Below the pieces are notes generated by a model. It was not told the DNA's origin. It saw only the letters and a program-made list of their open reading frames with translations, and searched no databases. The position numbers and the translations under genes are program-made. Of a stretch of DNA of 48,046 nucleotides, positions 28,458 through 46,469 are shown one piece after another. The stretch spans positions 1 to 48,046 of the forward strand of contig JACQWV010000078.1 of assembly GCA_016209085.1 (NCBI GenBank), written 5' to 3'. This DNA is from Elusimicrobiota bacterium. Its GTDB lineage: Bacteria > Elusimicrobiota > Elusimicrobia > Elusimicrobiales > UBA9959. Every line of letters starts with the position of its first letter. The stretch's first letter is position 1.

Positions 28458-30284
28458 ATGGCACAGGACGACACAGATAAAGAAAAAGAGTCTATTGAAG
28501 AAATACTCGGCGATTTAAACGCGCTTTTAAATAAAATGCCTGCCATTCTTTCAGACATAAAAATGCCTGAAATCAAGCCCGTTGAAATTCCGCCTTTGAG
28601 TGATGTGTCCCCCGCCGTATGGCAGGGTGACCTTGCTGAAGGCGGGTCCGAAGGCGGCGGGCAGGCGGAGGAGAAAACCGAATCGGAGCCGGTTGAAATA
28701 GAAAAAAGCAAATTAGAGATTGAAAGTCTCGCGGACTCTATTGTAGAAGAAATGCAGCGCCAGGACGAAGTTGCCGGAACAGAGCGGCATTGCCCGTCCC
28801 GCGATTCCGCGGGACGAGCGGCCGGAACGGAACAGGAAAACGAACCTCAACAGCCGCTTGACACGGGAAAACAGAACGGTTCAAAAGAATATCCGGAGTT
28901 TGAATTTGATTTATCTTCGGAAGCATCTGCCGGCGCCGGCGAAACTGATGTTAAAAAAGAGCCTGTAGAAACTGAGCAGGAAAAGCTGATTCCGCAAAGA
29001 CAGCCGGGCGCGGATTCTTTCTCCGGCCAGACTGCCGATGTCGCGGTACCTGATATAGACGATCTTTTGAACTTATCTTCAGAAAGTTCATCCGTAAGAG
29101 AGGATGAGCCCAAAGGAGTTATTGAATTTAAGAATGTTCAGATTGCGTTTTCAGAGCCGGATGTACAGGCCGGGCTTGAACCGACAAAGCTTGAAGAGCA
29201 AATCCAACAACAAGGGGGAGAAATGAGTTTAAATGAGAATAGTCAGGAAGATAAAGAAATCAAAAAAGAACCGGAACAACGAGCCTCCGGCTCATCAAGT
29301 GTCGGGGGCATTGTCCCCCGACCGGAACAAACTCCGCAGGAAAAAGAATACATGGAGACAATCAAGCTGGACCCTTCAGAATTGGAATTTAAAGCTATGG
29401 CGGACGAGCCTGTTGCGAAGACCGGGCAAGACTCCGAAGGGCAGGGAGAACTTCAGGATAAGATGGAAACCGGTCCCGGAGAATCCATGGAACAATCGCA
29501 GGCTTTGGGTGAACAAACGCCATCTGCCGACGGTCTTGGCGTCACGAAGGAAGATATCTCAGCGCAGCCTGCTGAAACAATGCCTGAAAGTCTTGAAGTA
29601 AAGGCTTCTCAGCAAGAGGTTGTCTCAGCATTAGAAATGCCTGCTGTGTCAGGCGGCATAGAAATCCAGAAAAAAATTGATTTGAATCCTGTTCAGACCG
29701 ATTTCGGCCAGACTTTGCCGGGCGTTCCTAACGGCCTGTCCTCCGAAGCCTTGGCGAAGGGGGAAGCTTTAGCGCAGGCGGACCAGGGAGGCGAGTCAGC
29801 TCCTCAAGAGGCTGCTGAAGAGAAAACTGTAATGTGGAGCGGTCAGGATCCTTCTTTGACTTCCCGTATTCAGCTTGAAGACATTAACCTTGATGACGTG
29901 TCATCCAAGACCCCTCCTGAAAGCATTCCTTCGGAGAGGGTTAAAACGCTTGCTTTTTTGTATTCCATGGGAGACGAAAAACTGTGCGCTTCCATGCTGG
30001 CAAAAATTGATTCAATCTGTCTTAAGTCCCGGACAAAACCGATGTTTGTCAAAAGATCTTTTGTCAGGGTGTTTGAACCCGACATGAAGGGCTCCTATCT
30101 GCTTGAACTTGCTTCCCAGTCTGCGTGTTCCGGAGTCGTATGCGTAGGCAACATTCCGCATGAAAACGTATACGACATAGAAAATTCCTTTAACTCTTCA
30201 AATTTGTTTTTCAGACACATAAGTTATGACAATTTCACTCATCCCGTTATGGTGGATATGATAGCTGATTTGATACTTCTTTGA
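28458..30284 (+). CDS. Long acidic, mostly disordered protein with folded C-terminus
   Basis: A 608-aa product from ATG 28458 (MAQDDTDKEKESIEEILG); an upstream in-frame ATG at 28440 would place the purine-rich stretch inside the gene. Residues 1 to about 490 are Glu/Gln/Pro-rich and probably disordered, with hairpin-derived insertions at 28795-28816 and 29301-29322. The last about 115 residues look folded (KTLAFLYSMGDEKLCASML, then YLLELASQSACSGVVCVGN). There is no signal or membrane segment, so it should be cytoplasmic. I do not recognise the fold. It is next to the DnaA-like ATPase and sensor kinase genes and may act with them. Confidence 0.7.
   Translation: MAQDDTDKEKESIEEILGDLNALLNKMPAILSDIKMPEIKPVEIPPLSDVSPAVWQGDLAEGGSEGGGQAEEKTESEPVEIEKSKLEIESLADSIVEEMQRQDEVAGTERHCPSRDSAGRAAGTEQENEPQQPLDTGKQNGSKEYPEFEFDLSSEASAGAGETDVKKEPVETEQEKLIPQRQPGADSFSGQTADVAVPDIDDLLNLSSESSSVREDEPKGVIEFKNVQIAFSEPDVQAGLEPTKLEEQIQQQGGEMSLNENSQEDKEIKKEPEQRASGSSSVGGIVPRPEQTPQEKEYMETIKLDPSELEFKAMADEPVAKTGQDSEGQGELQDKMETGPGESMEQSQALGEQTPSADGLGVTKEDISAQPAETMPESLEVKASQQEVVSALEMPAVSGGIEIQKKIDLNPVQTDFGQTLPGVPNGLSSEALAKGEALAQADQGGESAPQEAAEEKTVMWSGQDPSLTSRIQLEDINLDDVSSKTPPESIPSERVKTLAFLYSMGDEKLCASMLAKIDSICLKSRTKPMFVKRSFVRVFEPDMKGSYLLELASQSACSGVVCVGNIPHENVYDIENSFNSSNLFFRHISYDNFTHPVMVDMIADLILL
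28795..28816. repeat. In-frame palindrome cgtcccgcg-attc-cgcgggacg
   Basis: Perfect 9-bp arms with a 4-nt loop lie inside the acidic protein gene and code for part of CPSRDSAGRAAG. They sit within a wider gccggaac/gccggaac context. Confidence 0.8.
29301..29322. repeat. In-frame palindrome gtcggggg-cattgt-cccccgac
   Basis: Perfect 8-bp arms lie inside the acidic protein gene and code for part of SSVGGIVPRPEQ. A smaller stem, gagcc-tcc-ggctc, precedes it at 29281-29293. Confidence 0.75.
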
Positions 30285-30289
30285 AAACT

Positions 30290-30386
30290 GCAGTGGTTAG
30301 TGACGAGTGGCGAGAAAAAAAGCACATAAGCGTGGAAGTGTGTAAGGGAAAAAACCAACCACTAATCACTAACCACTCGCCACTGC
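30290..30386. repeat. gcagtgg/ccactgc imperfect inverted repeat
   Basis: gcagtggttagtgacgagtg (from 30290) faces ctaaccactcgccactgc (ending 30386). It fills the gap before the DnaA-like gene and belongs to the same simple-repeat family as 25555-25608. Confidence 0.65.
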
Positions 30387-30410: not shown

Positions 30411-32198
30411 ATGATTAAAAAATGGGATCTCGCGCCGTCCCCCACTCCCCAAAACAAATCAAGACATAAACTTCTTCTTAAGGCTGAAATGAAAGACATT
30501 TTTTTGATTGTCAAAAAAATGGGGGGGACATGTTCACGACCGGAGAAGACCGCCGGCGATTATGATTTCATGATTTATATTTTACAGCTTGACCCTGAAA
30601 TACTTGCCAAGCTTAAAAAAGTTGTTGAAGAACTGATGAAAATGGAGCAGGAGGAAAAGGCGGAAGAATTCAAACCCGTCAAATCTGCTGCCGCGTCCGC
30701 GCCGCGGCCAGCTGTGCCTGCTGATTCAGCCGGAGTAAAAAAAACAGAAAAGCCGTCGGTTCCTCCGGTTAAAGAAAGTCCTCCTAAAACCGTCGTTCCC
30801 CCGGTTAAGAGGGAAGCTCCTCCGGTTCAACCGCAGCCTGCGGTTGCGGCAGGATATATGCCTCCGAGTCAGAAAGATGTCACTTCCAGAATAAAAATCG
30901 CCCAAACGGATGCAGGGAAACCTCCTGAGGTGAAAAAAGAAGCGCCGGTTCCGGCCAGCGCCGTTCAAATCACCGCAAAACCTGCCGATATTCCGGCAAA
31001 AGCTAAATCCAAGTGGGCGATTGAAATACCGCTCATTCCGACCTATACGTTCGATACGCTTATAGCCGGCTCGCATAACCGTTTTGCGCACGCGGCGGGC
31101 ATGGCCGTGGTGGAAAATCCCGGGGTAATGTATAACCCCCTTTTGATATTCGGTCCTCCCGGCGCTGGCAAGACGCATTTCATTCATTCCATATTTTACG
31201 GAATATCTTCCAGCATGGGTCAAGGCAATATTTTTGTGACCGACGGCGTCAGGTTTTCCAAAGGCATTGATCTGGCTGTCAGAGACGGGAGCATCGCAAA
31301 ACTGGATGCCATGTTTTCAAAAATAAAAGTCCTGATTATAGACGACGTGCATCTGGCGATGATTTCGGAAAGCAACAAAAAATATATTTCAAAATGGCTT
31401 AATGATTTTATTTCAAGCAGCAGGCAGGTAGTCATATCTTCCGTGTTCCCGCCGAAAACGTTGTCTGGGCTCGAAGACAACCTTGGATTCCAGTTTACGC
31501 AGGGATGGATGGTTGACCTTAAATTATGCAATGCGCAGACTTATAAAATGATTTTAAATCAAATACTCGCGGGCATGGACGTAAAACTTTCAGATGAAGA
31601 AGTCAATCTGATTTTTTCCGGCAGTCCTCCTTTCAGCGAAGTAATCAAAATCCTGCGCGGGATGAAAAAACTTGAAAAATTCATAATTGCATCCAAGCCG
31701 GACATTACGCACAAGGATTTGCTTGACATGATTATGGGATTTTCCACCCCCCTTGAAGATACCGGCGTTATTGACGAAGAGGAGCTTTCAAAGGGAAATT
31801 CCTTTGACATGTCTGCCAAAAGCAGTTGGCTGAAATGGGGAATGTTCTTTCCCAAAGGTTCCCTGCCGCAGGCCAAATGGCTGCTTTATAAAATAGTAGA
31901 GAGGGGCAGGGAGATAGGAATTGACTTGGTCTGGGAACAGGTTTTTATGGAAGAATACAATCCGGACGAACTCTACGGCATTCCTTTTAAAATAGGCAAC
32001 TACTCGGACGACCGGCGCGTCAGCGGCGTGATAATAATGGGCCCGCAGCCTACTTCCGCCCTCGGCGCTCAGGAAAACGAGTTTGCTCAGATTACCGAAA
32101 GAATACTTGACAGTTTTCTTATCAGGAACACCTGGATTCCCAATTCCAGATTAAAATCGCACTCCGGATATGTAAAAGCATTAATGAATTTGTTATGA
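30411..32198 (+). CDS. DnaA-like AAA+ ATPase without DNA-binding domain
   Basis: A 595-aa protein. Residues 1-85 are a small charged helical domain; about 90-200 are a Pro/Lys/Val linker. Residues about 210-440 match the DnaA ATPase: FDTLIAGSHNRFAHAAGMAV, Walker A GPPGAGKT (248-255), Walker B LIIDDVH (308-314) and VVISSVFPPKTL. Where DnaA has its two Arg residues (D-R-L-K-S-R-F-x-W-G) this protein reads DNLGFQFTQGW, so both are lost, and the sensor-II Arg also seems replaced. There is no domain IV; instead about 150 residues of unknown fold follow (SSWLKWGMFFPKGSLPQAKW onward). It is therefore not the replication initiator but probably a signalling or localisation ATPase. It overlaps the kinase gene by 4 nt. 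Confidence 0.85.
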   Translation: MIKKWDLAPSPTPQNKSRHKLLLKAEMKDIFLIVKKMGGTCSRPEKTAGDYDFMIYILQLDPEILAKLKKVVEELMKMEQEEKAEEFKPVKSAAASAPRPAVPADSAGVKKTEKPSVPPVKESPPKTVVPPVKREAPPVQPQPAVAAGYMPPSQKDVTSRIKIAQTDAGKPPEVKKEAPVPASAVQITAKPADIPAKAKSKWAIEIPLIPTYTFDTLIAGSHNRFAHAAGMAVVENPGVMYNPLLIFGPPGAGKTHFIHSIFYGISSSMGQGNIFVTDGVRFSKGIDLAVRDGSIAKLDAMFSKIKVLIIDDVHLAMISESNKKYISKWLNDFISSSRQVVISSVFPPKTLSGLEDNLGFQFTQGWMVDLKLCNAQTYKMILNQILAGMDVKLSDEEVNLIFSGSPPFSEVIKILRGMKKLEKFIIASKPDITHKDLLDMIMGFSTPLEDTGVIDEEELSKGNSFDMSAKSSWLKWGMFFPKGSLPQAKWLLYKIVERGREIGIDLVWEQVFMEEYNPDELYGIPFKIGNYSDDRRVSGVIIMGPQPTSALGAQENEFAQITERILDSFLIRNTWIPNSRLKSHSGYVKALMNLL

Positions 32199-34153
32199 AC
32201 TTCATGATTTTATCGGTTACGGCCGTTCTGGTGGCGGTTTTTATTATTTACTGGCATTTCAAATTTAAATTTGTTTTCCCTCTTGAGAGCAGACTTTTTT
32301 TAATTGAAGGAAATCTTTCTAAATTTGACGGATTTGTAAAAGACATAATGGAACATTCTTACGTTCCGGATTCAATGGAGCATTACTCCGAACTTGTTGA
32401 AAACTGCCTTATCAGACTTCATAAGATATTTCCGGATGCCTGCATATTTACCTTTGAGGCTGTAAACGAGAACTGGAAGCTGATAAACTGTCTGAATGAT
32501 TTCGGCGACAGATTTGCGATAATGTCGGATTACAGGTGGGATGTTTTTGACAGGGCAGCCAAAACGTCGGAGACGGTGGTGGTTGAAAATTTTGAGTACG
32601 ATTCCGCCAATATCCTGGTAAAGTTTTTTAAGTCGCTGAATCTTAAATATGCGGCGGCGTGCCCATTCGGCGCGTTAGAGAAGAGCTCAAGATGGATATT
32701 CGTGTTCGCAAGCCCCAAAGCCCCGGATTACGACAGACTGCGCCCGTTTCTGGGCTTTTTGATTTCTCATTTCAACTCTCTTTACGCTTTTTCCTCCAGA
32801 GTGGTTCATATCGTCAAAGAAAATACGCAGATGAAAGACGAGCTGGGCGCTGTTTTGCATGAGCTGGACATGGCGGGGACTAAGCTCATTCAGAGGGCGA
32901 AAGAACGAAAAGCCCTGTACGAAGTCGTGACTGCGGTAACGGGCGAACATCGCGACCGTAAAATAGGATGCGCCGCAGTTTTGAATATAGTGGCAAAGAT
33001 AGCGGAAGCCGACGTGGTTGCATGCCTGCTCGTAGACGAAACAAAGGCCGAACTTGCGGTACAGCCGGGGGCATACGGCATACAGAAAGACGAATCCGCT
33101 TATTACAGAGTTCCCCTCTCTGATACGGCATCTTCCTCGGTCAGAACTTTTCTTACAGGCAAGCCTTTCATAAGCGGCAACGCCCAGGACGACCCTGATG
33201 TTATCCGGAAATATGCCTGCCTCTGGAACATCAATTCGCTTATGGTGGTGCCCATATCGCTTTATGATAAAACCATAGGAGTTTTGAGGGTTGGCAGCGC
33301 AAAACCTAATTTCTTCACCAACGAACAGCTTGAGTTTCTTAATATAATAGCGGATGAACTTGCAATTATCATAGAGATTTTCAGACTTTACGACAACCTG
33401 TCAAAAACAGCCGAGGAGCTTGCTCAGCTTAATAAAATCAAAGACGATTTCCTTTCCACTGTAAGCCACGAGCTTAAAACGCCGCTTACTACGATAAAAG
33501 GTTTCGTATCCGTGATACTCAGCGGCGAGGTGGGCCAGATTAACGAACAGCAGAGCAACTTTTTGAACATCGTGGACCAGGCAGTCAACAGGCTTAATAA
33601 TTTAATCTCCGATCTTCTTGATTTATCCAGGCTCAGCGGAAAGGTGGAGATGGAATTTAAAATGACGGATATGAAGGAAGTGATTAAGCATTCCCTGGAT
33701 AACATGTCTTTCAAAGCAAGAGAAAAGTCCATAAAAATATCCGCCAGTTTTGATGAAGACATTCTGCCTGTGCATGCAGACCCGAGATGGATAACCCAGG
33801 TCATAGACAATCTTCTGGTCAATGCCGTTAAATTTTCAAAAGCCGGGTCCAGCATTGATGTCACCGCGCATAACAAAGGAGACGTGGTAGTCGTCGGAGT
33901 GATAGACAACGGACCCGGCATCCCCCATAACGAGCAGAAATTCATATTTGAAAAATTCTATAGAGGAAAAAATAACGCCGGGCTTGTGCCCGGAACGGGA
34001 CTCGGTCTGGCCATATCAAAATCGGTAATTGAGAAACATAACGGAAAGATATGGGTTGAATCCAAAATGGGAGAAGGTTCCAGATTTTATTTTGCGATTC
34101 CCGCCGCAAAGACCCGTAAAAATGAGTCCAGAGTCACGAGTCAGGAGTCGTGA
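32195..34153 (+). CDS. GAF-containing sensor histidine kinase
   Basis: A 652-aa kinase with one N-terminal membrane span (about 3-22), a first GAF-like region (about 40-200), a short coiled coil, a second GAF domain (about 235-390) and HisKA with the phospho-acceptor H425 (FLSTVSHELKTPLTTIKGF). The HATPase_c domain shows N box NLLVNAVKFS, G1 DNGPGIP, F box FEKFYRG and G2 GTGLGLAISKS. It is cytoplasmic apart from the anchor. No receiver protein is next to it, so its partner is elsewhere. Overlap with the DnaA-like ATPase gene (ATGA) suggests tight co-expression. Confidence 0.92.
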   Translation: MNFMILSVTAVLVAVFIIYWHFKFKFVFPLESRLFLIEGNLSKFDGFVKDIMEHSYVPDSMEHYSELVENCLIRLHKIFPDACIFTFEAVNENWKLINCLNDFGDRFAIMSDYRWDVFDRAAKTSETVVVENFEYDSANILVKFFKSLNLKYAAACPFGALEKSSRWIFVFASPKAPDYDRLRPFLGFLISHFNSLYAFSSRVVHIVKENTQMKDELGAVLHELDMAGTKLIQRAKERKALYEVVTAVTGEHRDRKIGCAAVLNIVAKIAEADVVACLLVDETKAELAVQPGAYGIQKDESAYYRVPLSDTASSSVRTFLTGKPFISGNAQDDPDVIRKYACLWNINSLMVVPISLYDKTIGVLRVGSAKPNFFTNEQLEFLNIIADELAIIIEIFRLYDNLSKTAEELAQLNKIKDDFLSTVSHELKTPLTTIKGFVSVILSGEVGQINEQQSNFLNIVDQAVNRLNNLISDLLDLSRLSGKVEMEFKMTDMKEVIKHSLDNMSFKAREKSIKISASFDEDILPVHADPRWITQVIDNLLVNAVKFSKAGSSIDVTAHNKGDVVVVGVIDNGPGIPHNEQKFIFEKFYRGKNNAGLVPGTGLGLAISKSVIEKHNGKIWVESKMGEGSRFYFAIPAAKTRKNESRVTSQES

Positions 34154-34164
34154 GAGGATAATTT

Positions 34165-35274
34165 ATGAATCTGAAAAAAATGATTTTATGTTCCTTATCA
34201 TCTTTCCTCATTTGCGGATGCGCGGGAAACTTGAAGATAGGCCCCAAGGAGAATCTTGAGATTGTAGAGGCTGAAGGCGTTTTTGCCGGGACGCCTTACA
34301 ATCCTGTTGAGGCTAAGTCAGCCGCGTTGTTTAATGCCCGCAGGAATTCGGTGGAACGGGTTATGGATTTGTTTCTTAGCGATGAATTAAAGGTCAGGCG
34401 CCAGAGCCTGCTGGAATCAAAAATACTGAATGCGCCGCATGCATACATTAAGAAATATAAGATAGTCTCTGAGTCGGAAGGAGCGGGAGAATATAAAACA
34501 AAAATAAAAGCCTATATTTTTGTAGACAAAATCATGAATTCGCTTAGAAGCAGTAAATTAATACAGGGGCCTGCGCTCTCTTTTAAGAATTGTCTGGCCG
34601 TGAAAGAGACTATTGACGGGACAGCTTCAAAATCAGGAAAAACCTTACAGGGATTTGAAAGCGTTTTTAACGGGGAGAAGTCTTTTGAATGGACCAGATT
34701 ATCCGGCGAGGATATGCCCGAGGGCGATTTAATCCGGGCGGCTGCCGTTTCCGGCTGCCGGATAGCGCTTATCGGCGTTTCATCAGCTGAAAAGATTGCC
34801 GTCTCAGGCCAAATTCAGACCGGTTTCGTGCAGTATCGTTCAAAATTTACCGTGAAAGTATTTGACATTCCGACGGGAAAGGTTTCAGATGAAATTTTTT
34901 TAGAGGCAAACTCAATGGACGCCTCAGCCGAAAATTCCGCTCAAAAAGCCCTTTATTCGGCAGGAGAGGCTGTCGCGAGGGAAATAAGTCCTCGCATGAG
35001 CAAATTAATAAATGTTGAAACTCCGATGAAATTGGTCGTAAAATCCATTAAGGGCGCGGAGAAAATCAGAAACTTTAAAAATTTTCTTGAGTCTCTTCCT
35101 GTTGTGCAGGCTGTCAGTCTTGAAAATCTTGAATTCGGAGAGGCGGTATTCCACGTTTATGCCGGCCGCATACAGCCCGAAGAATTCGTAAGCCATATTT
35201 TAAGAAAAGAAATTCTCCCTCTTGAACTGGAAGGCACCGGCAAAAACGAGATTGTTTTGAAAGTAGTGCAGTAG
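34165..35274 (+). CDS. Lipoprotein, FlgT/LPP20-like
   Basis: A 369-aa protein with a lipoprotein signal (SFLICGC, lipidated C19). Residues about 30-130 resemble the N-terminal domain of FlgT-like proteins (SAALFNARRNSVERVMDLFL, then KYKIVSESEGAGEYKTKIKA). The rest has a CsgG/TolB-like look (GCRIALIGVSSAEKIAV, KVFDIPTGKVSDEIFLEA). The start is 11 nt after the kinase stop, with GAGAGG upstream. It heads a run of three lipoproteins. The family assignment is tentative. Confidence 0.65.
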   Translation: MNLKKMILCSLSSFLICGCAGNLKIGPKENLEIVEAEGVFAGTPYNPVEAKSAALFNARRNSVERVMDLFLSDELKVRRQSLLESKILNAPHAYIKKYKIVSESEGAGEYKTKIKAYIFVDKIMNSLRSSKLIQGPALSFKNCLAVKETIDGTASKSGKTLQGFESVFNGEKSFEWTRLSGEDMPEGDLIRAAAVSGCRIALIGVSSAEKIAVSGQIQTGFVQYRSKFTVKVFDIPTGKVSDEIFLEANSMDASAENSAQKALYSAGEAVAREISPRMSKLINVETPMKLVVKSIKGAEKIRNFKNFLESLPVVQAVSLENLEFGEAVFHVYAGRIQPEEFVSHILRKEILPLELEGTGKNEIVLKVVQ

Positions 35275-35275
35275 C

Positions 35276-35294
35276 GGCAGAGCGAAGCTCTGCC
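35276..35294. repeat. Hairpin ggcagagc-gaa-gctctgcc after the stop codon
   Basis: An 8-bp perfect stem with GAA loop starts 2 nt after the stop. It contains GCGAAGC, as does 6152-6168, which also directly follows a stop codon. Confidence 0.75.
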
Positions 35295-35306
35295 TTAAAG
35301 ATAATA

Positions 35307-35348
35307 AAAGGTGATAAGATGATAAGGTGGTAAGCAAGACAAAGGCAG
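35307..35348. repeat. 42-bp dispersed repeat, copy 2
   Basis: 41 of 42 bases match 7163-7204. Here the copy is wholly intergenic. Confidence 0.8.
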
Positions 35349-35419
35349 TAGCCAGGAAACAGGATACAACTATAAGCAGATTTTTTAAATTTCAATCCTT
35401 ATCAACAACTTGATTTTTT

Positions 35420-36016
35420 ATGAAAAAACTCATTTTCTCGGCATTGTGTCTGATTTTTTTGGGATGCGTCTCCCAGCAGAAATATACGATTTCGCCTCAA
35501 TTTTCCGCCTTCCGTTCCGAGAAACTGGTTCTTCTGCCTTTTGAAAACCGCACCGTTGATTTGTCAGCCCAGGAAATTCTGAGAAAAATGGTTCATAGGA
35601 GATTCACCGAAAAGGGATATTCCCTGCTTTCTATTGAGGAAACGGATGAGAAACTGCGCAGTATCGGGATAACGGACGGCGGACAGCTTAATTCGGCGCA
35701 AACGGATAAACTTGAAAAACTTTTCGGAAAGGGCATGTTCTGCTACGGGATAGTGGAAGATTTCATGCTTCAGAATGTGGGATTTGTGGTAAGAAAAAAA
35801 GTGGCGCTTAGTCTTAAAATCAGTTCCTCGTCCGGGGAAATTCTTTTTGAAGCTTCCGGCGAGGGCAGGGATTTAAAGATATTCACGGACAGAGAAAAGG
35901 CGAAAAAAGCGTTTGTCACCCAAACCGCCGTAAAACTTGTTCAGAACATTTTAAAAACGCCGCTTCTGCGCGAGTCGGAGATAGCCGTTGAAAAAATTTT
36001 TAGTAAAATACCTTAA
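35420..36016 (+). CDS. Lipoprotein, GNA1162/DUF799-like
   Basis: A 198-aa lipoprotein (signal MKKLIFSALCLIFLGC, lipidated C16). The core follows the GNA1162 pattern: FSAFRSEKLVLLPFENRTVD, a helix ending in the small IGITDGGQL loop, then LFGKGMFCYGIVEDFMLQNV and repeated beta strands (KVALSLKISSSSGEILFEA). In several Gram-negative bacteria such genes sit next to a csgG-like gene, as here. It is probably periplasmic-side outer-membrane associated. Confidence 0.7.
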   Translation: MKKLIFSALCLIFLGCVSQQKYTISPQFSAFRSEKLVLLPFENRTVDLSAQEILRKMVHRRFTEKGYSLLSIEETDEKLRSIGITDGGQLNSAQTDKLEKLFGKGMFCYGIVEDFMLQNVGFVVRKKVALSLKISSSSGEILFEASGEGRDLKIFTDREKAKKAFVTQTAVKLVQNILKTPLLRESEIAVEKIFSKIP

Positions 36017-36020
36017 ATCA

Positions 36021-36155
36021 CAGTAAATAGAGATTGAGTGATTGAGTAAATAGTGATTAAGTAAACAGTTATTAAGTAATTAAGTTTTCCTTAAAAAATT
36101 TCTAAAAACTTAATTGCTTAATCTCTCAATCACTTAATCACTCTGTTACTTGGAG
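36021..36155. repeat. Long imperfect palindrome of gattgag/ctcaatc words
   Basis: gattgagtgattgagtaaat (about 36032 on) faces ctcaatcacttaatcact (about 36126-36143), with an inner aattaagtttt/aaaacttaatt pair. It occupies the whole gap upstream of the csgG-like gene apart from the ribosome binding site GGAGG (about 36152-36156). Confidence 0.65.
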
Positions 36156-36160
36156 GAGAT

Positions 36161-37102
36161 ATGAAAAAACTGATTCTTGCAGCAGTCATCGCGGCGCCGG
36201 TGATATTTTCATCGTGCGCGCCGAGGAAATCCGTAAGACGGGAGCAGGCCATGTCTGTCAAGGAGACCGAGAAAGTTGAATCAAAATATACCGCGCCCAA
36301 GAGGAGAATAGGCGTGGTTGAATTTGAAAACAAGACAGCCTACGGCCAGGGGAGATTAGGCAGTTCGGCTTCCGACGTGTTGATAACCGAGCTTGTCAAA
36401 TCGGAAAAATTTATCGTGGTTGAAAGGGATAAACTAAACAAAATAATGGAAGAGCAGAAGTTCCAGGGACAGGGAATAGTTGACGCCGAAACTGCCGTCA
36501 AAGTGGGAAAGGTTTTGGGGCTTGAAGCCATAGTGGTCGGCGCAGTTTCCCAATTCGGCGTTAAAACCGAAGGCCATGATTATCTGCTCAAACAGGGAAA
36601 ACAGCAGGTTGCCGAGGTGGCGGTTGATATAAGGTTGGTTGATGTGGAAACCGGACAAATTCTTCTCGCCGACTCCGGCAAAGGCGTTACCAAACGCAAA
36701 TGGGGAAGTTTTCTGGGAATGGGCACAAAAGGCGGATATGACGAAACCATAGAAGGAGACGCTCTGCGGGCAGCTATAGTCCAGTTCGTGGATAATATCA
36801 TCAGCCAGATGAACAAGAAACAATGGTCCTGCGTGATAGCCGATGCTTATGACCAGGAATTGTACATCAGCGCGGGACAGGAATCAGGGCTTGAAATTGA
36901 AACAAAGCTTGACTGTTATCATCAGGGAACCGCTATAAGAGACCCCAGATCAAAGCTGGTGATAGGCCACAGGGAAGAATATATAGGCAGCGTTGAAATC
37001 ACAAGATATTGCGGGGAAGGGGGAGACTGCTCTATTGCAAAGCTTGTTAAAAGCGGTTCTGCTTCGGCAAAAGCAGGAGACATCTGCAGATTGGCAAAAT
37101 AA
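36161..37102 (+). CDS. CsgG-family lipoprotein
   Basis: A 313-aa protein with a lipobox (VIFSSC, C19). The CsgG-like domain covers about residues 48-215: RRIGVVEFENKTAYGQGRLG, VLITELVKSEKFIVVERDKL, AVKVGKVLGLEAIVVGAVSQ, VAVDIRLVDVETGQILLADS. A C-terminal part of about 90 residues with several cysteines is extra. CsgG in E. coli is a secretion pore for curli; without csgA/B/E/F nearby, a curli role is not supported, and many CsgG-domain lipoproteins have unknown roles. The start has a strong GGAGG. The stop overlaps the ATG of the next gene (TAATG). Confidence 0.85.
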   Translation: MKKLILAAVIAAPVIFSSCAPRKSVRREQAMSVKETEKVESKYTAPKRRIGVVEFENKTAYGQGRLGSSASDVLITELVKSEKFIVVERDKLNKIMEEQKFQGQGIVDAETAVKVGKVLGLEAIVVGAVSQFGVKTEGHDYLLKQGKQQVAEVAVDIRLVDVETGQILLADSGKGVTKRKWGSFLGMGTKGGYDETIEGDALRAAIVQFVDNIISQMNKKQWSCVIADAYDQELYISAGQESGLEIETKLDCYHQGTAIRDPRSKLVIGHREEYIGSVEITRYCGEGGDCSIAKLVKSGSASAKAGDICRLAK

Positions 37103-38982: not shown

Positions 38983-40305
38983 ATGACCGTTGAAACAGAA
39001 CTTGTTTCTCTTTTATCGGTACTTAGGCCGGATGTCTTGCGTTTAGACAGAATTTCTTCTCTTATACAAGATACAAGAGTTAATATAGATCTTTTTATTT
39101 CTCAAGTGATTTGGCACAAAGTTAAGCCTCAAGTACTTTTCAATTTGGCGCACATCTATAAAAATATTAGGGACAAGAGTCGCTTTTTTCAAAAAGTCGA
39201 GGATTATTTTTTAGAATATTCTCCCAATGCCTATGATAAAAACCAAATTGCAAAATTGTTTATGGAAAATATAAATAATATTCAGCGTTATCAGAAGGAT
39301 ATGATTTTTTTAAAAGGAAGCATATTGCAGGCTTTGTATTGTCAAAATACACACGCTTATCGGCAAATGAATGACATAGATGTCTTATTCCCGGATTTTC
39401 CAGCATTTTGTACCTTCTTAAATTCCTTACCTTTCATAGGATATGAATATCCGGATAAAATGCAGTTAAATTGTAGACACGTCCAGCCGGTTAAGGGAAA
39501 ATCTCAAATACCACTTTCAAAAGTTCGTCTTATATCGGCACACTGTGTCCCCATAGGATATCCAAAAAATAAAAGTTTTAGGAAGATCGATTTTAACTTT
39601 GGAGATTATCTTTATATACCCACAGCGAATATCTTACAAGATAAAAGATTGCTATCATTCAATCGAGTAAATTTTTATGCAACATCAGTTATAGATGAAA
39701 TCGTGATATTAATTGCTCACGCCGTAGACCATGTCCAGACGCGATGGCTATGGATAAATGACCTTTATATTTTATGTAAATATGAAGATATTAACTGGAA
39801 TAATTTATTTGACAAACTTCGGCAAAGGGGCTTATTGACGATCTTCGGCGCGTGGATTGATATTTTATCTGAGCTCTATAATGAATCAAAATTAATTCCT
39901 CCCGTATATGCAGAACAACTTGTATCTGCTTTTGATCCCTCTCGGAATTTACAAAAGTGGGTAAAAAAATCTATTATAGATAAACCATCTGCCTATGTGA
40001 ATTATAAAATTAAATCTGCGGTTATTACTAACAGTTCCAAATATTTTTTATCAGCAAAAATTGTGATTTTTGTGCTGTTCGTAAGTATGTTGAAAGAATA
40101 TATCCCTTACTCAATTATTAATTTTTTTAAAAAAATCACTGACCCCATAAAAATATTTTTTCATATACCTGTCGCCCTTCCGAGACTGTATGGATTTGAA
40201 CAATGCTTAGCAGAGCATTATGAAGGTAATTCGTTGTTTTTGGAATGGGATGTCTTTCGTGGTTTTAAAGTATCTTTTCAAAAATTTCTATTAAGAGAAG
40301 AATAG
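38983..40305 (+). CDS. Nucleotidyltransferase-family protein (NTP_transf_5-like)
   Basis: A 440-aa protein. Around residues 108-137 it shows the signature of the PF14907 group: LKGSILQALY, then RQMNDIDVLFPD with the paired Asp residues expected to bind metal. Later it has DHVQTRWLWINDLYILCK, also typical. Members often sit in peptide-natural-product clusters (for example lasso peptides) or capsule loci, frequently beside HprK-like kinases, as here. The substrate is not known. AT-rich coding and the lack of a clear ribosome binding site set it apart from the genes to the left. Confidence 0.75.
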   Translation: MTVETELVSLLSVLRPDVLRLDRISSLIQDTRVNIDLFISQVIWHKVKPQVLFNLAHIYKNIRDKSRFFQKVEDYFLEYSPNAYDKNQIAKLFMENINNIQRYQKDMIFLKGSILQALYCQNTHAYRQMNDIDVLFPDFPAFCTFLNSLPFIGYEYPDKMQLNCRHVQPVKGKSQIPLSKVRLISAHCVPIGYPKNKSFRKIDFNFGDYLYIPTANILQDKRLLSFNRVNFYATSVIDEIVILIAHAVDHVQTRWLWINDLYILCKYEDINWNNLFDKLRQRGLLTIFGAWIDILSELYNESKLIPPVYAEQLVSAFDPSRNLQKWVKKSIIDKPSAYVNYKIKSAVITNSSKYFLSAKIVIFVLFVSMLKEYIPYSIINFFKKITDPIKIFFHIPVALPRLYGFEQCLAEHYEGNSLFLEWDVFRGFKVSFQKFLLREE

Positions 40306-40340
40306 AATGCATTGTTCGCTGTTGGTTGGCATGAGATAGC

Positions 40341-41594
40341 GTGCGAGACTGTATGACCAATGAATTGAATCCGCTCCTGAAACATGTGCGGCTTAACATT
40401 CCCGAGTGTTTTAATGAAGCAAAAATTATAAAGAAGCAATACTCGCGTATTGTTAATTGCTTGCAGGAGGCAATTCTTCCTCCCTATGAAATAATTATCC
40501 ACCCCTCAAGCATTTGTAATTTAAAATGTTTTTGGTGTATCGGTAAAAATATCGGTCATACGTCAAATCGATTGTATCCATTAAACAGCCTGTCGGATCC
40601 TAAAAATATGCAAAAAATTGTAAAAGGAATTTTAGATTACCGAATAAAAAGTAAGGGATGGAGAGAAGATACCTCTGAGCATTTCCAAGTGGAAAACGTG
40701 TCTTTCTCCGGACTTATGGGAGAGCCATTAGTGGCTAAAGAATCTACTTTACTAGGCATGCGACTACTCATAGAAAATGATATTCGCGTTGGATTGTTTA
40801 CCAACGGAATATTAATGGATGAGGCAGCCATAGAGACAATCCTGCTGTCTGCGTGGGTACACTTTAGCATTGATGCGGGAAGTAAAAAAACTTACTCTTG
40901 GCTGAAATACCAAGGCACCGGCGAAACTTTGTTCGTAAAGGTTTTGCAAAATTTAAATAAATTAGCGATTAAAAAAGCGAATAGCAAAGAGGCAAAAGTA
41001 GAGATTAATGCTGGTTTTGTATTGAATAGATTTAACTATGCAGAAGTTTATGATGCCGCGCGAATTCTGAAAAATCTCGGAGTCAGATTTCTTCGCATTA
41101 AAACTGATATCGCCCAAAAGTTCCTATTAAATTCCGAAGAACGGAAGGAGGCAAAATTATTACTGGATAAAATAAAACTAAAACTAGTGGATAGAAATTT
41201 TGAATTAGTGGAGATTCATACGGTCGATAAAATAGACAATCGAAAAAGAAGTTTTCATGAATGTTTCGCGCATAAAATAGTCGGGGCTATAGGATCTGAT
41301 GGGGGCGTCTATCCGTGCAATTACCACCCTCATGTAACAGGAATTTGTTATGGGAATGCGATGGAAAGGCCTTTCCGAGAAATATGGGAAGGCGGGCAAA
41401 GAAAAAGATTGTTCCACTATATCCCCCAAAAATGTCCTCCTGTCTGTGATCCATTTAAGAATCGCGTAAATAAATTGTTCGGTGTCGTTAAGAGAATATA
41501 TTGCGGAGGAAAAGGCTTGGGTAAATTGGGAGTCTATAAAAATGACCTTTTAACAAAACTTCGTAGAAATACAGCGCGCTTAGAGAATAATTAA
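40341..41594 (+). CDS. Radical SAM protein with SPASM-like C-terminus
   Basis: A 417-aa protein. CxxxCxxC is C59-x3-C63-x2-C66 (CNLKCFWC), binding the 4Fe-4S cluster used with SAM; FSGLMGEPLVA and LFTNGILMD follow the usual barrel order. The C-terminal about 110 residues have the SPASM arrangement (ECFAHKIVGAIGSDGGVYPC, ICYGNAMERPFREIW, QKCPPVCDPF), which binds auxiliary clusters. SPASM enzymes include peptide maturases and the aminocyclitol dehydrogenase BtrN. GTG 40341 is the longest start; ATG 40353 is an alternative. Confidence 0.85.
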   Translation: MRDCMTNELNPLLKHVRLNIPECFNEAKIIKKQYSRIVNCLQEAILPPYEIIIHPSSICNLKCFWCIGKNIGHTSNRLYPLNSLSDPKNMQKIVKGILDYRIKSKGWREDTSEHFQVENVSFSGLMGEPLVAKESTLLGMRLLIENDIRVGLFTNGILMDEAAIETILLSAWVHFSIDAGSKKTYSWLKYQGTGETLFVKVLQNLNKLAIKKANSKEAKVEINAGFVLNRFNYAEVYDAARILKNLGVRFLRIKTDIAQKFLLNSEERKEAKLLLDKIKLKLVDRNFELVEIHTVDKIDNRKRSFHECFAHKIVGAIGSDGGVYPCNYHPHVTGICYGNAMERPFREIWEGGQRKRLFHYIPQKCPPVCDPFKNRVNKLFGVVKRIYCGGKGLGKLGVYKNDLLTKLRRNTARLENN

Positions 41595-41605
41595 TCATTA
41601 TTGTT

Positions 41606-42604
41606 ATGATACAAAAGTACTTAGATGTGTTAAAAAAATTTCTAGGTGCGAAACCCGTCTCTAACATAAAGCGCATAACAAATGGATTTACTAATATGAA
41701 TTGGTATGTTGGGGCGAGGGGAAAAATATTTGTCTTGAAAAAATTCAACGATACTTTTAGCGAAGAACGGATAAAATTTATCACTACTTGTCAAAATTAT
41801 CTTGCCAAAACAAAAAAATTCGCTCCTCAAATTTACCCATCAATCGATGGCAAATTATATCTCCGTTCACATGGCAGTTATTATATGCTTTCAGAATATA
41901 TCCAAGGATATTCCCTTTTGCCATCTCAGTTGCCACCGTATTCTTATGCTTATCTTGGCGCTTTTCTCGGAGGCATACACAAAGAATTAGAGTGTTTTAA
42001 AGAATATCCTGGTGAGCGGTATTTTTTGAAATATCCAAAGAATGCTTTAGAAAGAATCGAGTCTTTGCTTAAATATCACAAAAAAAATATTAGAAGTCCG
42101 TTTTATTACGATTCGTTAAAACTGAAGTATAAATTGCTTAGCTTGTTTGATGAGAACCTGATTAAGCGATTTTCTAATTTGCCAAAACAAATCATACATG
42201 GTGATTTTTATTTGGGCAATTTGATATTTAGTGAGTACCGAGAAACTCCTGTTCTTATAGATTTTGACCAGGCATCACTATTCCCCAGAATATATGAATT
42301 CATGCGCGCGGCGATTTTTTTAATGGATTGGCAGCAAAATTGGATAAATTTCAAAGAAAAAACGAAAAAGTTCTTACGTGCTTATCTCTCAAAAAACAAA
42401 TTAGGTCTCGAAGAGACCATTCTTGGCGTGGATTTCTATTATTGGATTCTTTTGTCCGATATTTTTTGCTTTAGCGTTAATAGTACTACAGGACAAGGAG
42501 ATTTAATGCCTTTCGCCAGATATCGAATAAAAATAATAAAGTCATTAAGTAAAAAAAGAGATTCCTTGAAAGAAGTATTGGCGCAGGCTTTTGCGGAGCA
42601 GTAA
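41606..42604 (+). CDS. APH-family phosphotransferase
   Basis: A 332-aa small-molecule kinase of the aminoglycoside phosphotransferase/CotS fold. The catalytic loop IIHGDFYLGNLIF (near residue 197) and metal motif VLIDFDQAS (near 217) are intact, and the N-terminal lobe has FVLKKFND and YYMLSEYIQG. The substrate is unknown; an amino sugar, alcohol or peptide hydroxyl would suit the neighbours. It starts 11 nt after the radical SAM gene, without an obvious ribosome binding site. Confidence 0.85.
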   Translation: MIQKYLDVLKKFLGAKPVSNIKRITNGFTNMNWYVGARGKIFVLKKFNDTFSEERIKFITTCQNYLAKTKKFAPQIYPSIDGKLYLRSHGSYYMLSEYIQGYSLLPSQLPPYSYAYLGAFLGGIHKELECFKEYPGERYFLKYPKNALERIESLLKYHKKNIRSPFYYDSLKLKYKLLSLFDENLIKRFSNLPKQIIHGDFYLGNLIFSEYRETPVLIDFDQASLFPRIYEFMRAAIFLMDWQQNWINFKEKTKKFLRAYLSKNKLGLEETILGVDFYYWILLSDIFCFSVNSTTGQGDLMPFARYRIKIIKSLSKKRDSLKEVLAQAFAEQ

Positions 42605-42630
42605 ACATTTCGGAGAATAAGGCAGAAAAC

Positions 42631-43785
42631 GTGCGATTATTTTTTGAAAGAACTCTTAGAATATTAGATAAATCCGAGGATATCACTTTTATTTGTGCTG
42701 GGGTTGGGGTAACTTTTAAAACTGATGAAAAATTGTTTGCCGGATGGACAAAATATTATTTTGCGGAATATTTTGAACAGTCTGATAAAATCGTGCTGAA
42801 TAATAAAGTGTACGCCACAGGAAACGGGAAAATTTTTCAGACAGCAAAAAAAATTACATCTATATTTAAGTGCGATGCCAATATTAATACTTTCAAAATC
42901 GATGCTAATCTTGATTTTATATGTTGCAAAAATGAACTGCCGTCTAAAGATGAATTCACTTATTATTTTTTGGATAAACAGAAAAAGTGCGTTCTGATTA
43001 TTGTTTCGCTGAATTATATTGAAGCCAAATATATTCCAATGAGAGTCATACGAGCACTTATCTCATTGTTGCTGGCCAACAAAGGCTGGTTTTATTTTCA
43101 TTCAGCATGTTTAGTTTATAAAGGTTTTGGAATTGGGATAATAGGCAATAAATTAGCCGGAAAAACTACTTGTATTATGAATTTGATGTATAAAAATGGT
43201 TACAACTTGCTTTCCAATGATAAAATCGCACTAGAGAAAAAGGATGGAGTCGTTAACGCTCAAGGTTTCCCTATTGCAATAGGAGTTAGAATAGGCACAA
43301 TTCGTTTGTTTTCAATCTTAAGGCAAACGACTCAAAATACTGAATATTTCAACCCGGATACTACAATAAAAAAATACCGCCATCTAACTCACTTCCAACT
43401 CAAGGATATTGATAAAAAAATATTCTTTCTTCCCAAAGAGATAGTTTCAGTATTCAATGTCTCTATTGTGCCGACTGCCCCGATTAGATTACTCCTGATT
43501 CCACAATATGACAATACCCTTCATAAACCGAAATTGATTAAACTTTCTCAACAAAAGACAAAGGCCATTTTGCAGAACCAATACCTTCCGAATATTTGTC
43601 CAGAACAAAATTTTATAGAAAAATTTATCGGATTAGATAAAAGAAAATTAAAAGTGAAATACAACACATTTATTGAAAATGCCCAGCATACAATTCCTTG
43701 TTACAAACTGATTCATAATGAATCAACTAATAAAGAATCCGCTTGTTTGGTTCAAAATTTGATAGATAAATTATTCGCAGCATAA
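42631..43785 (+). CDS. HPr kinase-like P-loop protein
   Basis: A 384-aa protein with GTG start. The C-terminal half has the HprK-type P loop GIIGNKLAGKTTCIMNLM (about 168-185) preceded by WFYFHSACLVYKG and followed by YNLLSNDKIAL, matching the HPr kinase order. The N-terminal about 150 residues are unlike true HprK. HprK-related kinases occur in lasso-peptide and other peptide clusters, where some phosphorylate the product. No HPr or PTS genes are present, so a tailoring role is more likely than carbon control. Confidence 0.8.
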   Translation: MRLFFERTLRILDKSEDITFICAGVGVTFKTDEKLFAGWTKYYFAEYFEQSDKIVLNNKVYATGNGKIFQTAKKITSIFKCDANINTFKIDANLDFICCKNELPSKDEFTYYFLDKQKKCVLIIVSLNYIEAKYIPMRVIRALISLLLANKGWFYFHSACLVYKGFGIGIIGNKLAGKTTCIMNLMYKNGYNLLSNDKIALEKKDGVVNAQGFPIAIGVRIGTIRLFSILRQTTQNTEYFNPDTTIKKYRHLTHFQLKDIDKKIFFLPKEIVSVFNVSIVPTAPIRLLLIPQYDNTLHKPKLIKLSQQKTKAILQNQYLPNICPEQNFIEKFIGLDKRKLKVKYNTFIENAQHTIPCYKLIHNESTNKESACLVQNLIDKLFAA

Positions 43786-43802
43786 CTTAAAAAGAAGCGA
43801 AT

Positions 43803-44999
43803 ATGGACAATTCAAAACAACAAAAAATCTTATCAGAAGTATTGCCCAAAGCAATTTGGGAAGGTGAACCTTTTTGGGGCGCATGGTACACTGAAGAAGA
43901 AATCGAGGCCGTTGTAAGGGTGATGCGCAATTCTGTCCATTGGAATGCTTCTCCGAGCAAAGAAATAGTGCGATTTGAGGAGGCATTCGCTGAATATGTC
44001 GGAGTAAATTATGCCTTAGCTATAAACGGCGCGGGCACAGGATTGGATATGGCTGTTAGGTGTCTATCTCCTGAACCAGGTGATGAAATAATATCTTGTG
44101 CGATCAACTTTCCAGGCACGCATCTGGCAATTATTGGTCAGGGATCTAAATTAGTGATAGCTGAACCTGATCCTAAAACTTTTAATATCGATCCAGAAGA
44201 TGTTAAAAAGCGGATTACCCCCAAAACCCGGGCTATAGTCGCCACGCATATGAACGGTCTATCAGTAGACATGGAGGCTTTGCTGAGATTAGCAGAGGAG
44301 TATCCGAATCCTAAATATGGCCCATTAAAGATTATAGGAGATTGCAGCCGTGCTTGCGGAGGACTTTATAATGGAGAACGGGTTGGGAAAAGAGGCTGGA
44401 TTAATGTGTTTAGTTTCCAAAGAAAAAAACCGATATCTACACTTGGCGAAGGAGGAATGATAACTACAGATGATGTGGAAGTCTATAAAAAAATTTTTAG
44501 ATGGAGATCTTTTGGAGACGGCGTCATATGGGGTACGAATTACAAAATGACTCATGCCCAAGCGGCTGTCGGCCTAATTCAATTAAGAAGATTGGACGAA
44601 ATAAATAAGTTAAGGATTAAACTAGCTAATCAACGGACAGATCTGTTAAGAGGAATTCCTGAGTTAAGACCTCCACATGAGCCTAAAGGCTATAAACATG
44701 TTTATTCCTATTACACACTTTTAACGTTTCCAGAATGGGCTGGAAGAAGAAGGGATTTACTGATACAAATAATGCGAGACAAATATCAAGTGGGATCTAT
44801 AATCGCAAACCCACCAACTTATTTGTCAAATAAACTAATATGGGAACATCTTAAGACCCAACGAACTCCATTAGCAGAGGAATTGGGGGCAAGATTGTTC
44901 TGCCCTTGTTTGCATTCTTTAATGACTAACAAAGAAAATGAGTATGTAGTTGCGGCGCTTGCAGCAACTGTCGATGAAATAAAAAAGCAGGACAATTGA
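43803..44999 (+). CDS. DegT/DnrJ/EryC1-type PLP aminotransferase
   Basis: A 398-aa PLP enzyme of the family that aminates keto sugars and ketocyclitols. Landmarks are YALAINGAGTGLDMAVRCL (cofactor phosphate binding), ISCAINFPGTHLAI, AIVATHMNGLSVDMEAL, IGDCSRACGGLYNG (Asp for the pyridine ring) and VFSFQRKKPISTLGEGGMI, with the internal-aldimine Lys in QRKK near residue 206. The nearest functional analogues by motif are sugar or scyllo-inosose aminotransferases; the exact substrate is unknown. It lies 17 nt after the HprK-like gene. Confidence 0.9.
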   Translation: MDNSKQQKILSEVLPKAIWEGEPFWGAWYTEEEIEAVVRVMRNSVHWNASPSKEIVRFEEAFAEYVGVNYALAINGAGTGLDMAVRCLSPEPGDEIISCAINFPGTHLAIIGQGSKLVIAEPDPKTFNIDPEDVKKRITPKTRAIVATHMNGLSVDMEALLRLAEEYPNPKYGPLKIIGDCSRACGGLYNGERVGKRGWINVFSFQRKKPISTLGEGGMITTDDVEVYKKIFRWRSFGDGVIWGTNYKMTHAQAAVGLIQLRRLDEINKLRIKLANQRTDLLRGIPELRPPHEPKGYKHVYSYYTLLTFPEWAGRRRDLLIQIMRDKYQVGSIIANPPTYLSNKLIWEHLKTQRTPLAEELGARLFCPCLHSLMTNKENEYVVAALAATVDEIKKQDN

Positions 45000-45029
45000 T
45001 ATTAGACATGATTTTATTTTTGAAATAAA

Positions 45030-45992
45030 ATGGACATGCATTTTAAGGCTTTTGAGGAAGCACTTCTGAATAATGATTATTCATCATTGCTTAAAATTGA
45101 CAAAGCAGATTTGCATGCGCATGCTTACCTGTCTGCTGGCTGGAATATATATAAAGAGTTAAATCCTAATATTACTACCCCTCCTAAATTTTTTAATGGC
45201 TTCTCACATTTTCTTTCCTGGTTAGAGGATAATAGGGTGGCACCGAATAAAACAAATTACGCAAAAATAATTTTTTCTGCCTTTAACCGTATGATTAATG
45301 AAGGCGTTATATATACCGAAATGTCATTTGATCTTCACGATTGTATGTTCATGAAAATGACAATAGCCGAGTGGGGAAAGATGATTCAAGATTTATACAA
45401 ACCATTTAGCAAGCGGTTGCAACTATGTTTGGAATTGGGGATTAATAGAAAAGACGAGCCCGAAACCTCAATTAAATATGTTGAGAAGGCAATAAAATCC
45501 GCAGCATTTCAATCAATTGATTTGTATGGAGACGAATTATGCCGTCCGATTTCCAATTTTAATAATATTTATAAATTGGCAAAGTCAGCTAAAATGAAAC
45601 TAAAAGCCCATGTCGGAGAATTCGGGTCAGCGTATGAGGTCTTATCAGCCATTGAATGCTTAAACCTACATTCCGTACAGCATGGGAACAATGCGGTTAA
45701 TGATGAAAAGGTTATGTCTTGTATTCGTGAACGAGGAGTCACTTTGAATATCTGCCCCTCCAGTAATATTGCACTTGGACTATATAAGTCAATATATGAA
45801 CATCCTATCAGAAAACTTTTTGACAAAGGCATACGAATAACTATAAACAGCGACGATTATATGCTGTTTAATTCTGGAATTAGTAATGAAATATTGCTGT
45901 TATATAAGAGTAAAATTTTTAATACCCCCGAATTATGGGAAATAATTACTAATGGATTGCAGGAAGCCTCGAGAAAGTGCTATATAGTATAG
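45030..45992 (+). CDS. Adenosine deaminase-like amidohydrolase
   Basis: A 320-aa TIM-barrel hydrolase of the adenosine/adenine deaminase type. The metal and catalytic residues appear in the usual order: DLHAH (H29, H31), KAHVGEFGS (near 194, family HAGE), VQHGNNAVND (near 217), LNICPSSNIALG and NSDDYMLF (near 273). HAGE to HVGE and NTDDP to NSDDY are deviations in the active-site loops, so the substrate may not be adenosine. A deaminase beside an aminotransferase, a kinase and a Nudix enzyme would fit nucleoside or aminocyclitol chemistry. Confidence 0.85.
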   Translation: MDMHFKAFEEALLNNDYSSLLKIDKADLHAHAYLSAGWNIYKELNPNITTPPKFFNGFSHFLSWLEDNRVAPNKTNYAKIIFSAFNRMINEGVIYTEMSFDLHDCMFMKMTIAEWGKMIQDLYKPFSKRLQLCLELGINRKDEPETSIKYVEKAIKSAAFQSIDLYGDELCRPISNFNNIYKLAKSAKMKLKAHVGEFGSAYEVLSAIECLNLHSVQHGNNAVNDEKVMSCIRERGVTLNICPSSNIALGLYKSIYEHPIRKLFDKGIRITINSDDYMLFNSGISNEILLLYKSKIFNTPELWEIITNGLQEASRKCYIV

Positions 45993-46469
45993 ATGGTTAA
46001 TGGGAACGATATGAGTCGCGCGCCTTTTCAAATATTGGTATTTCCGTATAAAATTACCGTAAAAAAACGCATTTATTACGCGGTATTTGGGCGAAGCGAT
46101 TCAAAAAACTGTTGGCAAGGTATAGCCGGCGGCGGTAAGGACAATGAAACACCGCTATCATCTGCCAAACGGGAAGCCTTTGAAGAAGCAGGGATTGGTA
46201 AAAACAACAAGTACCTTAAACTTGATTCTTATTCCATGCTTCCCGTAGTCAACGTGTGCGGATTTAAATGGGGTCCAAAAGTTTTGGTCATACCGGAGTA
46301 CTGTTTTGGCGTAGAAATCAGAAAAGGGAGAATAAGGCTATCTCGGGAGCATTCAGGTTTCAAGTGGGTTCAATATAGCAGCGCAATGCAGATGCTAAAA
46401 TGGGACAGCAACCGAAACGCCTTGTGGGAGTTAAATCATAGACTTAAATCAAAAGTAGGCGCAGTCTAA
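45993..46469 (+). CDS. Nudix hydrolase
   Basis: A 158-aa protein with a perfect Nudix box at residues 46-68 (GGGKDNETPLSS then AKREAFEEAGI), the diphosphate-cleaving Mg site. The layout resembles dihydroneopterin triphosphate pyrophosphatase (NudB-type) enzymes. The ATG directly follows the stop of the deaminase-like gene, so translation is coupled; a second ATG at 46011 is also possible. It is the last enzyme gene of the cluster. Confidence 0.9.
   Translation: MVNGNDMSRAPFQILVFPYKITVKKRIYYAVFGRSDSKNCWQGIAGGGKDNETPLSSAKREAFEEAGIGKNNKYLKLDSYSMLPVVNVCGFKWGPKVLVIPEYCFGVEIRKGRIRLSREHSGFKWVQYSSAMQMLKWDSNRNALWELNHRLKSKVGAV

What the first reader, a model, noticed from the sequence alone, without database searches (positions are those of the whole stretch)
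30411..32198. DnaA-like ATPase that lost domain IV and both arginine fingers
The AAA+ part is clearly DnaA-type with intact Walker A and B, but the segment holding the two DnaA arginines reads DNLGFQFTQGW, the sensor-II Arg appears lost, and the DNA-binding domain is replaced by about 150 residues of unknown fold behind a long Pro-rich linker. It should bind ATP yet not form the DnaA filament in the normal way. Overlap with a GAF histidine kinase gene suggests a signalling role rather than replication.
Basis: partly seen in the sequence, partly recalled or inferred. Interest (0 to 1): 0.7.

Follow-up and report, generated by a model that had tools for sequence, protein, structure and literature searches.

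The report
Replication ATPase domain captured by scaffold protein
In a little-studied bacterial phylum (Elusimicrobiota), the ATP-binding part of the DNA-replication initiator DnaA was built into an unrelated scaffold protein that often sits beside a dedicated pilus-motor gene and a sensor kinase, and in the lineage of this window that part later lost the residues DnaA needs to assemble.

Summary
ORF 30411-32198 (595 aa) has a clear DnaA-type AAA+ domain (Pfam Bac_DnaA 7e-32; best fold match DnaA domain III), no domain IV, invariant Walker A and B, and N/Q at the two DnaA arginines. Sensor II is not clearly lost (K413), and the Pro-rich linker lies before the AAA+ domain, not behind it. The genome has a canonical dnaA plus dciA. 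Orthologues occur in nearly all Elusimicrobiota outside Endomicrobiaceae, as N-domain / AAA+ / C-domain. The upstream acidic protein carries the same C-domain, and in sister families also the same N-domain: a paralogous scaffold without the ATPase. Other classes and three families of the same class keep both DnaA arginines, so the loss is derived, within the class. In 20 deep-lineage loci a PilT-family gene lies just upstream; 19 of these copies, placed in a tree, form one clade (100/100) apart from all other sampled PilTs. An acidic gene precedes the ORF in 40/40 close relatives and a GAF kinase follows in 39/39. Best reading: a non-replicative, ATP-binding regulatory scaffold, ancestrally tied to a PilT-type motor and a GAF kinase. 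Anatomy is shown; function is inferred.

The parts
30411..32198 (+). DnaA-type AAA+ scaffold protein (595 aa, P0001)
   Evidence: orthologues
30411..30650 (+). N-terminal domain, residues 1-80 (b-b-a-b-a, pLDDT about 93), not DnaA domain I by Pfam; same domain in acidic paralogues of sister families
   Evidence: (hhalign prob 99.4%)
30666..31025 (+). Pro/Ala/Lys-rich disordered linker, about residues 86-205
31038..31514 (+). DnaA domain III core (Bac_DnaA match)
31152..31178 (+). Walker A (GPPGAGKTH, residues 248-256)
   Evidence: K254 invariant
31329..31346 (+). Walker B (VLIIDD, residues 307-312)
   Evidence: D311 and D312 invariant in 41 close relatives
31473..31508 (+). box VII / arginine-finger segment (EDNLGFQFTQGW, residues 355-366): R281->N357, R285->Q361, L290->W366
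31647..31649 (+). K413, possible sensor II residue
   Evidence: register disputed
31803..32195 (+). C-terminal domain (b-a-b-a-b-a-b-a, Rossmann/flavodoxin-like; pLDDT 89, pTM 0.83), no specific known relative
28458..30284 (+). acidic partner (608 aa), mostly low-complexity, ending in a paralogue of the C-terminal domain
   Evidence: adjacent in 40/40 close relatives
29901..30281 (+). C-terminal domain of the acidic partner
32195..34153 (+). histidine kinase (one apparent TM segment by eye, GAF, HisKA, HATPase), overlapping by 4 nt
   Evidence: follows in 39/39 close relatives

Best explanation
The gene encodes the ATPase-bearing member of a pair of paralogous scaffold proteins specific, as far as tested, to Elusimicrobiota. 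The scaffold is a small N-domain, a disordered linker and a Rossmann-like C-domain; in this member a DnaA domain III sits between them. Ancestrally it was encoded directly after a dedicated PilT-family ATPase and an acidic scaffold and before a GAF histidine kinase, with DnaA arginines intact. It most likely worked as an ATP-dependent assembly switch connecting kinase and PilT-type motor. In the lineage of the window the finger, box VII, ssDNA-binding and sensor I residues were lost while ATP-binding motifs stayed invariant, so the window protein most likely binds ATP as a conformational or tethering signal without in-trans hydrolysis or DnaA filaments, pairing with the acidic partner through the related C-domains under kinase control. 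Shown: domains, paralogy, conserved gene order, the PilT clade, residue loss. Inferred: ATP binding, partner binding, kinase input, link to pilus activity.
For: DnaA domain III by sequence and fold. Canonical dnaA and dciA elsewhere. Ortholog clade separate from canonical DnaA, which is one clade at 100/100. R285 is R in 19/19 and R281 in 17/19 deep orthologues, against 4/42 and 3/42 in the window's clade. N- and C-domain paralogy with the acidic gene (prob 99.4% E 4e-21; prob 98.1% E 1e-13). Acidic gene upstream in 40/40 and kinase downstream in 39/39 close relatives, gaps often -4 to +10 nt. PilT-family gene just upstream in 12 of 16 deep loci and in 8 Arg-less loci, often overlapping the acidic gene; 19 of those PilT copies form one clade (100/100) apart from 40 other sampled PilTs. 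Every one of 25 tested genomes with the protein has PilT-family genes; 15 of 23 without it do (presence of the protein).
Against: The window's own genome and the sampled close relatives lack the dedicated PilT, so a pilus link is ancestral and may not apply here. The family with the smallest genomes (f2) keeps the protein while the acidic gene is not found and no kinase lies beside it, so neither partner is indispensable. Gene adjacency does not prove physical interaction. Several genomes have PilT without this protein. The C-domain has no specific structural relative.
Confidence: 0.5

Rival explanations
1. A kinase-linked signalling ATPase with no connection to pilus motors: a nucleotide-sensing adaptor for the GAF kinase.
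For: Kinase directly downstream in 39/39 close relatives; the window genome lacks the dedicated PilT.
Against: PilT-family adjacency in 20 loci spanning many families, with the 19 sampled copies forming one dedicated clade. The kinase is absent beside the gene in f2 and genus g6 while the ATPase persists.
Confidence: 0.25
2. A regulator of canonical DnaA (Hda-like, or a titrating dead paralogue) that couples signalling to replication.
For: The AAA+ domain derives from DnaA.
Against: The R285 position is Q and R281 is N; no motif like Hda's QLSLPL; weak match to Hda (31 bits against a 195-bit cutoff; BLASTP 23.5 bits); interface residues R227, K243 and R281 replaced; gene context is not replication.
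Confidence: 0.12
3. A competence factor: comM lies downstream and pilus-motor genes upstream in deep lineages, so the module could serve DNA uptake.
For: comM downstream in most loci with enough flank; dedicated PilT clade upstream.
Against: comM lies several genes away in the window; a dprA-topA-xerC-like order seen after comM in some loci (by eye) is a common bacterial arrangement; no competence-specific partner tested.
Confidence: 0.1
4. A helicase loader of the DnaC/DnaI/IstB kind.
For: AAA+ of the initiator/loader group; weak IstB match.
Against: dciA is present beside canonical dnaA, and a published survey places dciA-type genes in the replication operon of Elusimicrobia (PMC5109545). 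The arginine finger is lost.
Confidence: 0.02

Closest known systems
DnaA (chromosomal replication initiator), domain III
   Same: AAA+ fold and sequence, Walker A and B
   Different: no domain I or IV; R227, K243, R245, D269, R281, R285 replaced; different N- and C-domains; separate clade; canonical DnaA also present
Hda / HdaA
   Same: DnaA-type AAA+ without domain IV
   Different: 23.5 bits only; no clamp-motif-like peptide found; Arg finger absent; extra N- and C-domains and linker
PilT/PilU type IV pilus ATPases (genomic partner, not a homologue)
   Same: a dedicated PilT clade is encoded just upstream in 20 deep-lineage loci
   Different: this protein is not a PilT; the window's own genome lacks that PilT clade
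DnaC / DnaI / IstB ATPases
   Same: initiator/loader-type AAA+
   Different: no loader context; dciA present

Membership tests
DnaA | AAA+ domain III with Walker A and B | tested here: met
DnaA | domain IV DNA-binding helix-turn-helix (PF08299) | tested here: not met
   no match in P0001; canonical DnaA of the same genome matches
DnaA | arginine finger R285 and box VII R281 | tested here: not met
   Q361 and N357; Q361 in 41/41 relatives
DnaA | sensor II R334 | tested here: inconclusive
   K413 by one alignment, S409 by another
DnaA | score over the family's curated cutoff (TIGR00362, 343.9 bits) | tested here: not met
   135.4 bits
Hda | score over curated cutoff (TIGR03420, 194.8 bits) | tested here: not met
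   31.5 bits
Hda | N-terminal clamp-binding motif | tested here: not met
   two pattern searches, no hit in P0001; E. coli Hda QLSLPL is found by one of them
Hda | stimulates DnaA-ATP hydrolysis with the clamp | not testable with these tools
   biochemical
helicase loader (DnaC/DnaI) | genome lacks dciA | tested here: not met
   dciA found over cutoff beside dnaA
type IV pilus-associated regulatory module | encoded with a PilT-family ATPase | tested here: inconclusive
   met for orthologues in 20 deep loci, but not for the window genome itself
type IV pilus-associated regulatory module | affects pilus activity | not testable with these tools
   genetic

The most novel reading that the evidence does not exclude
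Elusimicrobiota possess an undescribed control module for a dedicated PilT-type motor in which the ATP switch of the replication initiator was grafted into a scaffold protein. The window shows a late stage in which the switch has lost its arginine fingers and its motor partner but is still conserved.
Probability: 0.35. Interest if true: 0.8.

Novelty: new variant of a known kind. Interest (0 to 1): 0.62.

Why it matters
DnaA's AAA+ domain is normally read as a replication part. Here it appears captured into another protein, spread through most of a phylum, with sequenced stages both before and after the loss of its assembly residues. Tied to a dedicated PilT clade, it would be a new way to control a pilus-type motor and a natural experiment in turning an oligomerising ATPase into a nucleotide-binding scaffold. 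It also warns against annotating such genes as DnaA in Elusimicrobiota genomes.

Tried and rejected
Hda or DnaA-inactivator reading: rejected on Arg finger, clamp motif and scores. Helicase loader: rejected, dciA present. Known family for the C-, N- or acidic domains: no Pfam hit even at E 5; PDB profile search best E 1.2; Foldseek gives only generic Rossmann-like matches (lumazine synthase, PIWI, B12-binding; TM 0.5-0.6). First hhalign of the two C-domains with close relatives only was not significant; deeper profiles made it so. Mobile or phage origin: no relative in viral contigs, plasmids or phages. A second Bac_DnaA protein in genome G066 (f15) matches neither the N- nor the C-domain profile and ends like canonical DnaA, so it is not an orthologue. 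One PilT row in the tree was translated in the wrong frame (G022b); the right frame is 79% identical to the window genome's C37 copy, so the conclusion stands. Literature searches found no description of such a protein; only open-licence PMC papers were searched. Occurrence outside the phylum could not be tested: the single genome-contig scan, with query peptides from this protein, returned only loci titled Elusimicrobia/Elusimicrobiota or 'bacterium'.

Full report
OBSERVATION. The ORF at 30411-32198 (595 aa) is real and conserved: 60 of 61 related genomes have a match and 42 loci were fetched from one public collection, the named ones titled Elusimicrobia or Elusimicrobiota. Residues 210-368 match Pfam Bac_DnaA at 7e-32. 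The closest solved chains are DnaA, and the AlphaFold model (mean pLDDT 78.8; the low part is the linker) matches B. subtilis DnaA domain III with TM 0.79. TIGR00362 scores 135 bits against a cutoff of 344. Walker A K254 and Walker B D311/D312 are invariant in 41 relatives. Position R285 is Q in 41/41, and R281 is A, S, N or other, never R. In the window protein R227, K243, R245, D269, R281, R285 and L290 of E. coli DnaA are all replaced; L290 becomes W366, W in 46 of 46 f1 rows. The roles of R281, R285, R227, K243 and R334 in E. coli are taken from PMC5742627. Sensor II stays open: one alignment places K413 there, another does not. There is no DnaA domain I or IV match, in contrast to the canonical DnaA of the same genome. 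The Pro-rich stretch (86-205) comes before the AAA+ domain.

ANATOMY. The model shows an N-domain (1-80), a disordered linker, the AAA+ domain with lid, and a C-domain (465-595) of alternating strands and helices. Neither end domain has a Pfam match, and Foldseek finds only generic Rossmann-like folds for the C-domain. The upstream acidic protein (28458-30284; 20% D+E) ends in a domain homologous to this C-domain: hhalign prob 98.1%, E 1e-13 with phylum-wide profiles, 98.7% and 2e-16 among deep lineages. In some sister lineages the acidic paralogues (L185, L186, L189, L193) also begin with the same N-domain (prob 99.4%, E 4e-21). So the protein looks like an acidic-type scaffold carrying a DnaA domain III; the direction of that change is inferred.

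CONTEXT. In close relatives (family f1, genome-contig loci) the acidic gene is directly upstream in 40/40 and the kinase directly downstream in 39/39, with overlaps or gaps mostly under 10 nt. In the window the overlap is 4 nt. Further downstream come two lipoprotein-like genes (one GNA1162-like), csgG and comM. In f2 the acidic domain is not found in the genomes tested and no kinase lies beside the gene, while the ATPase is kept, with total lengths of 933-1624 aa in the loci fetched.

EVOLUTION. A tree of 81 AAA+ domains puts all canonical DnaAs in one clade (100/100) and the window's protein in another with f1, f2 and other families (100/100 branch); the Arg-intact orthologues lie between. 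The latter come from other classes and from families f3, f4 and f9 of the same class. They have R285 in 19/19, R281 in 17/19, D269 in 19/19 and R334 in 18/19, against R285 in 4/42 and R281 in 3/42 of the window's clade. The loss is therefore derived and happened inside the class. Long branches limit finer claims, and some f2 members show R or K at the R285 column.

PILT LINK. In 12 of 16 Arg-intact deep loci, and in 8 loci of the Arg-less clade, a PilT-family gene lies on the same strand just upstream; two tested copies score 406 and 432 bits on TIGR01420 against a cutoff of 319. Gaps to the acidic gene are -11 to +18 nt in the seven measured. In a tree with 40 other PilT copies from the same phylum, the 19 adjacent copies sampled form one clade (100/100); the three PilTs of the window's genome all fall outside it. 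All 25 tested genomes with the protein have PilT-family genes, against 15 of 23 without it (with presence). This ties the ancestral module to a dedicated PilT-type motor; by contrast, the window lineage has lost that partner.

MECHANISM. Shown: domain composition, paralogy, gene order, invariant ATP motifs, loss of assembly and ssDNA residues. Inferred: the ancestral protein bound ATP, used its arginine finger in trans, and acted as an assembly switch between the GAF kinase and the PilT-type motor; the window protein binds ATP but neither hydrolyses in trans nor forms DnaA filaments, and acts through C-domain pairing with the acidic scaffold. Replication roles are unlikely because canonical dnaA and dciA are present and no Hda-type clamp motif was found.

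LIMITS. Functional claims rest on gene adjacency. No paper found describes this protein, within an open-licence library only.

Noticed in passing
window 38983-46469: Directly after comM lies a run of genes on one strand: NTP_transf_5 nucleotidyltransferase, radical SAM/SPASM, APH-type phosphotransferase, an unmatched P-loop protein (HprK-like by eye), DegT aminotransferase, adenosine-deaminase-like, NUDIX. It resembles a small biosynthetic or modified-peptide cluster.
   Followed up: partly
window 30292-30377 and 34125-34153: Imperfect inverted repeat of GAGTGG/CACTAACCACT-like units between the acidic and DnaA-like genes; similar GAGT-rich sequence forms the last codons of the kinase gene. 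Probably a dispersed repeat.
   Followed up: no
window 34165-37102: Two lipoprotein-like genes (one GNA1162-like) and a CsgG-family gene follow the kinase and are conserved in order across relatives.
   Followed up: partly
L189 4572-6346: Two consecutive acidic-type paralogues, both with the N- and C-domain and no ATPase, lie between pilT and the DnaA-like gene.
   Followed up: partly
L080, L081, L082 (family f2, genus g14): Orthologues of 1518-1624 aa whose disordered linker makes up most of the protein, with the ends conserved.
   Followed up: no
L035 3968-4417 and L051 3220-3657, minus strand: A CheY-like receiver protein encoded on the opposite strand upstream of mtaB; a possible response regulator for the kinase.
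   Followed up: no
G066, locus L224: This Endomicrobiaceae-family (f15) genome carries a second Bac_DnaA protein that ends like canonical DnaA, on another contig; duplicate or contaminant.
   Followed up: no
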